Assembly (NCBI RefSeq): GCF_003399625.1
Contig: NZ_NBXA01000031.1
Coordinates: 1-53,802 of the forward strand
Source: Subtercola boreus
GTDB lineage: Bacteria > Actinomycetota > Actinomycetes > Actinomycetales > Microbacteriaceae
DNA: 53,802 bases
Reading direction: 5' to 3'
The position numbers and the translations under genes were made by a program. Under the pieces are notes generated by a model that had not been told where the DNA came from, made no database searches, and worked only from the letters and a program-made list of their open reading frames with translations. This document shows, piece after piece, positions 27,103-52,472 of this stretch; the stretch's first letter is position 1, and each line of letters opens with the position of its first letter.

Positions 27103-27133
27103 ATTCAATGCCATGCCCTAAGGGCAGGGTCAA
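27103..27133 (-). promoter_or_regulatory. MerR-type promoter of the CPBP protease gene
   Basis: On the minus strand: -35 TTGACC (27133-27128), 19-bp spacer and -10 TTGAAT (27108-27103). The spacer centre on the + strand is TGCCCTAAGGGCA, a perfect 13-bp dyad at 27114-27126. The overlong spacer with a dyad is the hallmark of MerR-activated promoters. The start would be about 40 bp upstream of the ATG at 27057. Confidence 0.72.
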
Positions 27134-27151
27134 GATCATTCTGAAACAGGG

Positions 27152-27548
27152 TCACTTCTTCGGCGCATCAGCGTCACAGAGAGCCTTGTCGAGGGTGTCG
27201 ATGACGATCGTGTATCGCTCCAGCAGTTCCCCTTCCGGTCCATCGAAGATGGCCCACGGCAAAGCGGCGGCGGTGACGGTGAACGCCATGCCATCCGCTG
27301 TCACGGCGTTCCGAGTCTGGAATCCGGGAATGTCTCCCGAATGACCCCAAGCCGTTGCGCAGCTGAGCTCGACGCTCTCAATTCCCGGTCCGGACTGGGA
27401 ACCGGGCAGTAGCTCCTCGCCCGTCGGTACCCCGTCAGCATCTGCGTCATCGTGATCTCATCCACGAGCCTGCCTCCCAGATCAGCACGCATGAACTCGT
27501 TGAGCTCGCTCGGAGTCGAGACCATTGCGCCAGCCGCCCATGTTCAAA
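27152..27548 (-). pseudogene. Serine hydrolase C-terminal fragment, duplicate of the 44871-46112 gene
   Basis: Reading from about 27548, the frame gives TWAAGAMVSTPSELNEFMRA then LVDEITMTQMLTG, closely matching the intact serine hydrolase at 44871-46112. A one-base loss near 27432 then shifts the frame, and the other frame reads GIESVELSCATAWGHSGD, GFQTRNAVTADGMAFTV and ALPWAIFDGPEGELLERY to the TGA at 27152-27154. The catalytic SxxK part is missing. This is a truncated second copy, and its 5' edge is a recombination junction. Confidence 0.85.
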
Positions 27549-27986
27549 CCAAGGGGCTGCATGCTTCAGTACCAGAGCGCCTTGCGCTCAGCGGACACCG
27601 CCAGCTGGGAACGACCGGGACTTTGCATCACTCCCGAAGGAAACCCCCTCCTGATGACCCAGGGGCTCAAGGGATGGAACACCGACGCCGAAGCGATAGA
27701 GGAGTTCCTCGACAACGACGAAGGGCCCGAACAAGGCTGGCTCGGGCCGTGCGGCCATGTGCGCGGCAACGGCATCGACCCGGCCACCGGTGATCTCAAA
27801 ATGGGTAGGGCTGGCTGATTCGACGAGATATTCGCAATATACGACGACCATCTCAAGGGCGACAACCCGTCGGGCGACGTTTCGACACAGGGCAAGCGCG
27901 CTGCCTATCTTGACCTCACTCTGATGTTCGCTACCAAGCAAATCGAGCCGGCGAAGGGCAGCTTTGAACTCCGAATCAGGAAGTGA
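27540..27986 (+). pseudogene. Unknown protein interrupted by an in-frame TGA
   Basis: From ATG 27540 the frame encodes MLQYQSALRSADTASWERPG, then GWNTDAEAIEEFLDNDEGPE and GHVRGNGIDPATGDLKMG before a TGA at 27816-27818. The same frame stays coherent and acidic after the stop (FDEIFAIYDDHLKGDNPSGD, LDLTLMFATKQIEPAKG) and ends at 27984-27986. The codon position and composition suggest one gene with a nonsense change. I do not recognise the family. An opposite-strand frame at 27588-28004 is considered a shadow. Confidence 0.45.
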
Positions 27987-28119
27987 GACCACCACTGTGC
28001 TCATCCGATTCGGAGGGGCCGATGCTTCGGTTGACTATGCCCCAAGGACACGGTGTTGGCTGAAGCCATCGGCGGCATCCGCCGCCAGTTGTTGTTACGC
28101 AAGACTCGGAGTTGAACGC

Positions 28120-28624
28120 GTGATCGAAGCCCACTCTCTGACCAAGCGGTACGGCTCGAAGACTGCCGTCGACTCCATTGACTTCACCGCTCGCCCAGGT
28201 TTGGTGACGGGCTTTCTCGGCCCCAACAGCGCCGGCAAGTCGACCACAATGCGGATGATCATCGGCCTCGACCGCCCCTGCGTTCGGGACTCCGGACTGC
28301 GTCGGTTCCCCGGCTCATCGCCATGCGGCGGATCATCGGTGACCCGCGCGCCGCCTGGCGCAATGTCTCTGCCGTCGCACTGCTCGGGGTCATTGCGTCC
28401 TACCTCTCCAAAATCCCCATAGACCCTGCTGCGCTGGGTATCTCCGTCGGGTCGACCTTTTGCTCGCCACGCCGTTCATGAGCCAGTTCGGGCTCGAGGC
28501 ATCAGGGGTGCGGCTCATTGGCGCCACCGTGCTCTCGGGTGTCGCGCTCACCGTCGGGGTCGCGGAAATGTGCCGGCCCCTCCAACACCAGATCCTCACG
28601 CACGCAACTCGACGTAACGACTGA
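28120..28624 (+). pseudogene. ABC transporter remnants: ATPase N-terminus joined to a permease C-terminus
   Basis: From the GTG at 28120 the frame gives AHSLTKRYGSKTAVDSIDFT and GFLGPNSAGKSTTMRMIIGL, an ABC ATPase start with a Walker A reading GPNSAGKST. Homology stops near 28274. A second segment, LIAMRRIIGDPRAAWRNVSA and VASYLSKIP-like, then in another frame LLLATPFMSQFGLEASGVRL and VLSGVALTVGVAEM, looks like the end of an ABC permease and stops at 28622-28624. The signature, Walker B and most of the permease are deleted, so this is not functional. Confidence 0.72.
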
Positions 28625-28654
28625 CCCGCCATACAGAAATTGAAAGAGGCCAAC

Positions 28655-50959: not shown

Positions 50960-51654
50960 CAGGAACAACGGTCAAAGCTGTTCGTCACTATCACGAGATC
51001 GGTCTGCTTGACCTTCCGGAACGCACGTCCAATGGATACAAGCAATACTCGGTCGGACATCTCGTTCGACTGCTGCGAATAACTCGACTGACCGATCTCG
51101 AGGTGCCGCTGGCTCAGATTGCCGTAATGGAAAGCTCGGATTCACAACCGGAAGAAGCACTTCGTGTGCTCGATGCGCAACTCGCCGAGACCATTGAGCG
51201 CCTGCAACGGATCAGCGCGGAACTCAAGATGATCCTTCGTAATCAGTCATCGATGGACATGCCCTCTGGGTTCAGCCCGATCTCCGTCGATATCTCTGAG
51301 GCGGATCGCGCACTGATCATGATCTATTCGCGGGTGTTCGGACCAGCCGAGATGGACGATGTGCGCTCGATGATCATCGATCTGAGGAAAGACCCCGCTC
51401 ATACCCAATTCGACAACCTCGCCGAAGACGCTGGCGAAGAAACCCGGCAATCGCTGGCCGAGCACTACGCTCCACTGCTCTCTACTATCACCAGCCGATA
51501 CCCCTGGATGAGCGATCCGGGAAGTCGAGCTCCGCGAGGCGCAAGGTACGCCGAGAGCACTCTGGGCGAGGCAATTCACGACCTGTACAACGCCGCCCAG
51601 CTGGATGTGCTGCGGCGGGTGAGCATGTTGCGAGCGCCGGAGGCTGACGGGTGA
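50926..51654 (+). CDS. MerR-family regulator, paralogue 2
   Basis: A 242-residue MerR protein: MAWSTSQIAELAGTTVKAVR, HYHEIGLLDLPERTSNGYKQ, YSVGHLVRLLRITRL, then a dimer helix (LAETIERLQRISAELKMIL) and a C-terminal domain more divergent and shorter than in the other two paralogues. The ATG lies 34 bp inside the dgdA-like gene, so it is co-transcribed and probably translationally coupled. A MerR-type promoter follows 24 bp after its stop (51678) and drives the SpoIIM-like gene. Confidence 0.88.
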   Translation: MAWSTSQIAELAGTTVKAVRHYHEIGLLDLPERTSNGYKQYSVGHLVRLLRITRLTDLEVPLAQIAVMESSDSQPEEALRVLDAQLAETIERLQRISAELKMILRNQSSMDMPSGFSPISVDISEADRALIMIYSRVFGPAEMDDVRSMIIDLRKDPAHTQFDNLAEDAGEETRQSLAEHYAPLLSTITSRYPWMSDPGSRAPRGARYAESTLGEAIHDLYNAAQLDVLRRVSMLRAPEADG

Positions 51655-51677
51655 CCATCGGGGTGTAATCCGCGTGC

Positions 51678-51708
51678 TTGACCCTGCCCCCAGGGCATGC
51701 CGTTGAGT
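51678..51708 (+). promoter_or_regulatory. MerR-type promoter of the SpoIIM-like gene
   Basis: -35 TTGACC (51678-51683), 19-bp spacer CTGCCCCCAGGGCATGCCG with arms TGCCC and GGGCA, and -10 TTGAGT (51703-51708). It is immediately downstream of MerR paralogue 2 and would give a leader of about 45 bases before the ATG at 51759. Confidence 0.72.
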
Positions 51709-51758
51709 GATGGATGTCGCGAATACGCGATGACTCACTCACTCACGGAGCAGCATCC

Positions 51759-52382
51759 ATGCGATTTCTTCGCACCCCCCTTCAGATCATCCGCGCCGAC
51801 ATCCGCCCCTACCTGGCCATCAACGTAATCGCCTACGGGGCATTCGTCGTCGGATTCATCGCTGCAGTGATCTTTCCCGAACTCGGAGCAGATCGAGGAG
51901 CGACATTGGAGAACAACGGAACGGGTGATCTCGTGCGGTCGCTCTTTCTCAACCCAGCGCTCTTCGCCGTCGTAATCTTCGGGGTCAACGTGGTTGCCAC
52001 CGCGGCACCGTGGATCGTACTACCGTCGCTCATCGTTCCCTTTGCGGGGATTGCCGCGTTCGCCTATCACGCTTTCACCCTCGGTTCGGGCCTCGCCCCG
52101 ACCACCGACATCGCGACGGTCGGACTGATCCCTCATTCCCTCACTGTCATCATTGAATTCCAGGCCTACGCCCTTGTCATGTTCGGCGCTTATCTCCTCG
52201 GACGATCGTGGATCCGGCCCGCAAGCGTCGGCGCGCGCACCCACCGGATCGGCTACCTGCGCGGGTTGAAGAAGCTCGGATGGCTGAGCCTGCCAGCGCT
52301 CGCGCTGTTCGTCATCGGTGCGATCTATGAGGCGCTGTCACTTCGCTTTCTGGTTCAGCCGCTCGTCGAGCTCATTCTCTAG
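51759..52382 (+). CDS. SpoIIM-like (stage II sporulation protein M family) membrane protein
   Basis: A 207-residue membrane protein with about five hydrophobic segments: LAINVIAYGAFVVGFIAAVI, NPALFAVVIFGVNVVATAAP, LPSLIVPFAGIAAFAYHAFT, LIPHSLTVIIEFQAYALVMF and LSLPALALFVIGAIYEAL. The Gly/Tyr-rich helices and the PHSLTVIIEFQAYALVMFGAY segment fit the SpoIIM family, widespread in non-sporulating bacteria. ATG 51759 has CGGAG upstream. Sits between two MerR genes under a MerR-type promoter. Role probably in membrane or envelope stress. Confidence 0.7.
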   Translation: MRFLRTPLQIIRADIRPYLAINVIAYGAFVVGFIAAVIFPELGADRGATLENNGTGDLVRSLFLNPALFAVVIFGVNVVATAAPWIVLPSLIVPFAGIAAFAYHAFTLGSGLAPTTDIATVGLIPHSLTVIIEFQAYALVMFGAYLLGRSWIRPASVGARTHRIGYLRGLKKLGWLSLPALALFVIGAIYEALSLRFLVQPLVELIL

Positions 52383-52441
52383 CCCCTGACTCTCGGGACG
52401 AAGACCCGGTTACTCGTGATGTTCTTCGCGAGGGACCCCAC

Positions 52442-52472
52442 TTGACAGTGCCCCGAGGGCAGGGAGTTGAAT
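52442..52472 (+). promoter_or_regulatory. MerR-type promoter of MerR paralogue 3 (autoregulation)
   Basis: -35 TTGACA (52442-52447), 19-bp spacer GTGCCCCGAGGGCAGGGAG and -10 TTGAAT (52467-52472). It precedes the GTG of the third MerR gene by 43 bp. The box belongs to the same family as the other sites, so at least one paralogue probably controls this gene. Confidence 0.72.

What the first reader, a model, noticed from the sequence alone, without database searches (positions are those of the whole stretch)
27103..52472. A local MerR regulon: seven promoters with 19-bp dyad spacers and three MerR paralogues
Seven sites (27103-27133, 35659-35689, 36804-36834, 36883-36913, 48512-48542, 51678-51708, 52442-52472) share a TTGAC -35, exactly 19 bp, and a weak -10, each directly upstream of a gene in the correct orientation. 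The spacers share a common dyad. Three closely related MerR proteins without metal-binding Cys are encoded nearby, one behind such a site. Targets are envelope or resistance genes: beta-lactamase, CPBP protease, SpoIIM-like, small multidrug export, GPP34, S33 peptidase. I know of no described regulon with this composition.
Basis: partly seen in the sequence, partly recalled or inferred. Interest (0 to 1): 0.88.

Follow-up and report, generated by a model that had tools for sequence, protein, structure and literature searches.

The report
Local MerR-controlled regulon island
A stretch of an actinobacterial genome carries envelope and resistance-type genes that share one unusual kind of promoter switch, most likely read by three sister sensor proteins encoded among them, and similar arrangements occur in related bacteria.

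Summary
All seven 31-bp sites are present, TTGAC-N-19 bp-hexamer with a dyad, each ahead of a gene. The core pattern, built from those seven, has only two more exact matches in the 4.12-Mb genome, both ahead of plausible targets; eight of nine lie in this window. A weaker variant (39152-39182) precedes an MFS remnant. The 11 other genomes held for the genus have none. In relatives, 28 of 49 distinct MerRs have such a site within 100 nt upstream, and the half-site goes with one recognition-helix residue: K, C in 24 of 25; N, T in 16 of 16; R, GCCG in 5 of 5, though this rests on about three changes on the tree and one plasmid locus departs from it. In six MerR-bearing genomes sites cluster (13 in 29 kb in one). 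Recurrent targets: MerR, export-like membrane protein, CPBP, SpoIIM-like, S33/TAP, ABC, beta-lactamase. The helical sensor domain has no Pfam match; AlbA drug-binding domains are its top structural hits, too weak to decide. Best reading: an undescribed autoregulated MerR regulon, probably drug- or envelope-stress-responsive. Binding and inducer untested.

The parts
27103..27133 (-). MerR-type promoter site, PSSM 43.7
   Evidence: 45 nt ahead of the CPBP gene
26272..27057 (-). CPBP/CAAX (Rce1-like) intramembrane protease-family gene, target
   Evidence: PF02517 E 2.6e-18 on 26275-27114; CPBP behind sites also in L055 and L057
28031..28061 (+). MerR-type promoter site, PSSM 39.5 (not in the finding)
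28120..28422 (+). remnant of an ABC transporter ATPase gene (100 aa; relatives 308 aa), target
   Evidence: PF00005 E 1.3e-6; 308-aa homologues behind sites in L115, L116, L121
35659..35689 (-). MerR-type promoter site, PSSM 31.8
33895..35631 (-). TAP-like/S33-type alpha/beta hydrolase, target
   Evidence: PF08386, PF00561; homologues behind sites in L061, L067
36804..36834 (-). MerR-type promoter site, PSSM 43.3
36118..36711 (-). small membrane protein, small-multidrug-export-like, target
   Evidence: own Pfam scans empty; three relatives match PF06695 below cut-off; family downstream of 23 of 142 sites
36883..36913 (+). MerR-type promoter site, PSSM 44.7, divergent from 36804
36980..37741 (+). 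GPP34 (GOLPH3-like) gene, target; start codon uncertain
   Evidence: PF05719 E 1.5e-29 on 36905-37738, 8.1e-30 on 37061-37738
37895..38674 (+). MerR regulator 1, possibly co-transcribed behind GPP34
   Evidence: PF13411, PF00376; A1
39152..39182 (-). variant MerR-type site (GACG/CGTC half-site), PSSM 11.2
   Evidence: architecture pattern; 6 nt ahead of an MFS remnant; same 6-nt distance ahead of a look-alike MFS gene in L111 (likeness by eye)
38753..39145 (-). MFS transporter gene remnant (in-frame stop, truncated), named by eye
   Evidence: described only
48512..48542 (-). MerR-type promoter site, PSSM 38.0, 6 nt ahead of the start codon picked
47573..48505 (-). class A beta-lactamase gene, target
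   Evidence: NF033103 316.9 bits, cut-off 200; PF13354
50926..51654 (+). MerR regulator 2 (paralogue type B)
   Evidence: groups with L055:6389, L056:12200, L057:7812 at 100/100
51678..51708 (+). MerR-type promoter site, PSSM 37.1
   Evidence: no Pfam match (222-aa reading); only a chance-level DUF6713 match, E 0.55; family downstream of 8 of 142 sites
52442..52472 (+). MerR-type promoter site, PSSM 37.6 (would be autoregulatory)
52516..53295 (+). MerR regulator 3 (paralogue type A), 43 nt behind its own site

Best explanation
A regulon island. Three cysteine-free MerR-family proteins (winged HTH, coiled coil, an all-helical C-terminal domain of about 150 residues) read one operator. Dimers sit on a 21-bp dyad inside 19-bp-spacer promoters that RNA polymerase uses poorly by itself. 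On binding a small molecule, most likely an antibiotic or other membrane-active natural product, the protein kinks the spacer and brings -35 and -10 into register, switching on its own gene and eight or nine local promoters whose products protect or remodel the envelope: beta-lactamase, CPBP protease, small export-like membrane protein, GPP34, TAP-like hydrolase, and formerly ABC and MFS transporters. Shown by sequence: the sites, their architecture, their confinement, the MerR association in relatives, the residue-base association, the recurring targets. Inferred: binding, activation by distortion, shared use of the sites by the three paralogues, the chemical nature of the inducer.
For: Exact sites confined to C31 and C76; the 11 other genomes held for the genus have none. 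31-mer PSSM: 101 hits at 12 bits or more in 764 kb against 1 in the reversed control (overlapping loci and the 29 seed sites included). Own-promoter site within 100 nt upstream of 28 of 49 distinct MerRs. Residue 17 against site: K 24/25 C10, N 16/16 T10, R 5/5 C10 and G12; a C-K pair is reported for CueR and actinobacterial metal regulators (section 15 of PMC5045206 read). Choosing 105 distinct sites on positions 1-20 only, position 31 is T in 104 and position 26 T in 98, as a -10 hexamer predicts; 7 of 84 picked starts lie 6-7 nt behind, leaderless spacing. 113 of 142 distinct sites have one of 11 target families downstream on the same strand, against 118 of 426 random stretches of the same loci. 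HTH closest to TipA among PDB sequences (E 4.1e-16). 19-20-bp spacers and activation by distortion are the MerR rule (passages of PMC9909328).
Confidence: 0.77

Rival explanations
1. Same promoters, but the three paralogues divide them: each regulates its own subset or only its neighbour, rather than sharing one operator set.
For: Type A and type B paralogues form separate clades found together in this genome and in three named relatives, which suggests distinct roles; effector regions are only 37-54% identical; sites vary at positions 10, 11, 17 and 18.
Against: The recognition helix is the same in all three apart from one aliphatic residue (GTT[IVL]KAVRHYH) and the wing NGYKQY is identical, so the HTH gives no sign of different DNA preferences.
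Confidence: 0.35
2. A MerR regulon, but for another signal (redox, electrophile, lipid or envelope damage) rather than an antibiotic ligand.
For: Several targets or neighbours are envelope or oxidoreductase genes (CPBP, GPP34, S33, luciferase-like and SDR genes); the AlbA match is too weak to decide.
Against: No Cys in the three window proteins, so no thiol or metal-thiolate sensing; beta-lactamase, MFS, ABC and export-like genes among the targets.
Confidence: 0.3
3. The sites are read by a different regulator, and the nearby MerR genes are coincidental.
For: Binding was not tested; two of three window MerRs have no own site within 100 nt upstream; in G060 the site and the MerR found lie on different contigs.
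Against: Sites precede MerR genes in several families, go with the MerR recognition residue and track MerR presence; the other PF00376 matches of this genome (C3, C18, C7) are not on a contig with an exact site.
Confidence: 0.04
4. Chance or a dispersed repeat element.
For: Short motif, high G+C genome; about 0.93 exact core matches expected per genome by composition.
Against: 8 of 9 matches in 1.3% of the genome, ahead of genes in the right direction; conserved -10 letters outside the selecting positions; flanks differ between sites.
Confidence: 0.01

Closest known systems
TipA class of MerR regulators (TipAL of Streptomyces lividans, SkgA, Mta)
   Same: Closest HTH among PDB sequences (2vz4, E 4.1e-16); HTH, coil, helical effector layout; site ahead of its own gene; multidrug logic (part 1 of 3 of the Results of PMC7762955 read).
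   Different: No Pfam match of the effector domain at E<=10 in six examined (that Pfam holds a TipAS model is recalled); many dispersed local promoters and paralogue sets, whereas TipA-class factors are called minimal autoregulated systems (start of the abstract).
AlbA of Klebsiella oxytoca (albicidin-binding MerR-like protein)
   Same: Top two structural hits of the effector-domain model are AlbA drug-binding domains 9qbm and 6et8.
BmrR/BltR/Mta of Bacillus subtilis
   Same: Three MerR paralogues in one genome and multidrug genes (passages of PMC9909328); long-spacer promoters as for MerR regulators in general.
   Different: Different effector fold and no local island of many promoters (both recalled).
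CueR and other metal MerR regulators
   Same: Fold of HTH and coil; lysine-cytosine pair in the recognition helix.
   Different: No Cys in the three proteins; metal genes not seen among the targets; NCBIfam metal models far below cut-offs.

Membership tests
MerR family | N-terminal MerR winged HTH | tested here: met
   PF00376 and PF13411 above cut-off in all three
MerR family | operator dyad inside a 19-20-bp spacer between -35 and -10 | tested here: met
   seven sites, 28031 and C76:5093; -10 letters conserved outside the selecting positions
MerR family | ligand-dependent activation by DNA distortion | not testable with these tools
   needs in vitro transcription
TipA class (TipAS domain) | C-terminal TipAS domain by sequence | tested here: not met
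   no Pfam family at E<=10 in six effector domains (that Pfam holds a TipAS model is recalled); PDB TipA-class matches cover HTH and coil only
TipA class (TipAS domain) | TipAS/AlbAS fold | tested here: inconclusive
TipA class (TipAS domain) | autoregulation | tested here: inconclusive
   own-promoter site in 28 of 49 MerRs; regulation itself not measured
Metal-sensing MerR subfamilies (MerR, CueR, CadR, ZntR) | metal-binding cysteines | tested here: not met
   0 Cys in each of the three
Metal-sensing MerR subfamilies (MerR, CueR, CadR, ZntR) | score over the curated NCBIfam cut-off | tested here: not met
   best 43.7 bits against 151.45

The most novel reading that the evidence does not exclude
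A so far undescribed clade of Actinomycetes MerR sensors that builds regulon islands, some on plasmids: paralogues with a common DNA-reading head but diverged ligand domains share one set of clustered promoters, so that unrelated signals feed one protective programme; a residue-17 code (K, N, R) keeps different islands of one cell apart; and the promoters mostly lack the usual A at -11, which would keep them silent without the activator.
Probability: 0.33. Interest if true: 0.75.

Novelty: new variant of a known kind. Interest (0 to 1): 0.57.

Why it matters
It gives a readable operator, a candidate recognition-residue code and a target list for a MerR clade found in 36 of 299 genomes sampled from the family and 37 of 394 sampled from the class at E<=1e-40 (the samples overlap), for which my literature searches turned up no description. 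Poorly annotated membrane families (the export-like and the SpoIIM-like proteins) gain a shared regulatory context with beta-lactamase and transporters, so their role in resistance or envelope defence becomes testable, and the site can be used to find further members.

Tried and rejected
Rejected: chance; metal sensing (no Cys, NCBIfam below cut-offs). The 7 one-mismatch hits elsewhere in the genome were left aside as chance-like; one, C49:34044, also fits the architecture pattern, but I saw no plausible gene behind it. At 2 mismatches the pattern has no excess over the backwards control (304 against 493). G152's hit lacks the -10 letters and G152 is not among the MerR-bearing genomes. Full-length fold searches matched HTH and coil, so the effector domain was modelled alone; Foldseek on that model could not be run, only the VIA second look of 167 chains, where no TipAS entry was listed. 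Independent-pair tests of the residue-base association had too few pairs; the Fisher values ignore phylogeny. PHROGs gave nothing for three membrane proteins. A first architecture pattern was one base too long, corrected; the corrected one still misses four of the finding's seven sites. Some ORF picks are plainly wrong (L062, L064:10767, L068, L069) and were not used for target names; one search used protein similarity. GPP34 enrichment was expected and not found. Duplicate loci were dropped (L102 repeats L057, L065 repeats L117). Literature: searches (15 of 194 listed; 3 of 3; 15 of 18; 10 of 2,596; 4 of 4; 6 of 6; 12 of 42; 0; 8 of 9) showed no paper on this regulon; these are capped listings with the starts of abstracts, and most subscription papers are not held.
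Full report
Observation. All read TTGAC-N-19 bp-hexamer, with a dyad centred on position 14. The window is contig C31 of a 4.12-Mb, 95-contig genome. Its family is Microbacteriaceae, judged from two genomes of the family whose contig lengths equal those of Cryobacterium sp. PH31-O1 and Labedella endophytica records.

Specificity. The core TTGACNNNGNCCNNNGGNCA has nine exact matches in the genome: the seven (by construction), 28031-28050 (+) in this window and C76:5093. 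Composition predicts 0.93 per genome and 0.012 in the window. The 11 other genomes held for the genus have none; their backwards controls have 0-3 each. In 299 genomes sampled from the family a 22-letter form hits 8, with 0 in the backwards control; 7 of these 8 have a MerR of this kind at E<=1e-40 against 29 of the other 291. In one of the seven, G060, that MerR is only 40% identical, has R at residue 17 and lies on another contig than the site.

The extra sites make sense. 28031 stands 58 nt ahead of an ABC-ATPase remnant of 100 residues (PF00005) whose 308-residue homologues stand behind sites in L115, L116 and L121. C76:5093 stands ahead of a CocE/NonD hydrolase, followed by a CPBP-like gene interrupted by an IS110-like transposase gene (both named by eye). 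A pattern that fixes only -35, outer dyad and -10 letters finds one more, 39152-39182 (-), 6 nt ahead of an MFS remnant; a look-alike MFS gene in L111 has a site at the same distance.

Relatives. A scan of the genome-contig collection with one MerR gave 17 loci; exact sites begin 73-81 nt upstream of the match in L055-L059, L068 and L069, and L061, L062 and L065 have a GTTC/GAAC version at the same place. Over 38 sources, 764 kb with some overlap, the PSSM built from 29 sites gives 101 hits at 12 bits or more and 1 in the reversed control. In the class sample 37 of 394 genomes have the MerR at E<=1e-40, and 24 of 28 loci taken from that search carry at least one site, reversed control 1. On plasmids, 7 records have it; in the four I opened, sites at 10 bits or more precede the MerR gene in three, and also DUF418 genes, an alpha/beta hydrolase and a hypothetical gene; CPBP, serine hydrolase, GPP34, LLM and SDR genes lie around them.

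Clustering. In six whole genomes chosen because they carry such MerRs, the architecture pattern (backwards control 0 in all six) gives 13 sites in Labedella within 29 kb; 10 in G080 in two stretches of about 12 and 9 kb; 9 in Cryobacterium in two stretches; 2 in G216; 1 in G134; 6 in this genome, five of them in the window. The pattern misses four of the finding's seven sites, so these are lower bounds.

Who reads the site. Of 49 distinct MerRs, 28 have a same-strand site within 100 nt upstream. In a larger set, 46 of 74 have a site within 300 nt. Residue 17 of the recognition helix goes with the half-site: K, C at position 10 in 24 of 25; N, T in 16 of 16; R, C10 and G12 in 5 of 5. The label changes only about three times on the tree, so this is support rather than proof, and the two MerRs of plasmid locus L154 (R and Q) have CGGC in one half only (not in these counts). 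A lysine-cytosine pairing is reported for CueR and actinobacterial metal regulators (section 15 of PMC5045206). All three window MerRs have K and the same recognition helix apart from one aliphatic residue; HTH identity 72-81%, effector identity 37-54%.

Paralogues. MerR 50926 groups with L055:6389, L056:12200 and L057:7812 (100/100), and each of these loci also has a type-A paralogue: a two-sensor set in this genome and in records named Lacisediminihabitans, Herbiconiux and Cryobacterium. 37895 and 52516 are sister copies (99/79).

Promoter. Selecting 105 distinct sites on positions 1-20 only, position 31 is T in 104, 26 T in 98, 29 A in 67; position 27, the -11 base, is A in only 7. Seven of 84 picked starts lie 6-7 nt behind position 31, as for leaderless messages, among them the beta-lactamases of the window and of Cryobacterium (the coding-score picks prefer later starts there). 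These letters were not used to choose the sites and argue for genuine promoters; the scarcity of -11A is unexplained, since placing -11A is the step that MerR proteins are said to control (passages of PMC9909328).

Targets. Of 142 distinct sites, 113 have one of 11 families on the same strand downstream: MerR 47, export-like 23, CPBP 10, SpoIIM-like 8, S33 6, GPP34 5, ABC 5, beta-lactamase class A 4, PF00144-type 1, esterase 2, CocE 2; random stretches of the same loci 118 of 426, opposite side 62 of 142. By my recount 21 of the 113 are seed genes themselves, and GPP34 shows no enrichment.

Conclusion. Control by MerR-style distortion follows from the family if binding is confirmed; drug sensing is the most likely input, not shown.

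Noticed in passing
L038 (G000:C76) 7481-8734: IS110-like transposase gene (by eye) inside a CPBP-like gene behind another regulon site; described only.
   Followed up: partly
window 38753-39145: MFS transporter remnant with an in-frame stop behind a variant MerR site; with the ABC remnant at 28120 the island shows decay of two transporter targets.
   Followed up: partly
window sites and relatives, position 27 of the 31-mer: The -11 base of the presumed -10 element is A in only 7 of 105 sites although -12 T and -7 T are nearly invariant.
   Followed up: partly
L116-L117 (G108:C8 153682-182549): Labedella has 13 architecture-matching sites in 29 kb, the most in the six genomes, with luciferase-like, LtrA, CPBP and PF00144 targets and SDR-like ones by eye.
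   Followed up: partly
window 39239-44716: By eye: MacB-like ABC efflux operon next to a two-component system, between regulon sites but without a site of its own.
   Followed up: no
window 28640-30188: By eye: small lipoprotein-like gene (no Pfam match) and a VanZ/RDD-like membrane protein gene downstream of the ABC remnant; may belong to the same transcript.
   Followed up: no
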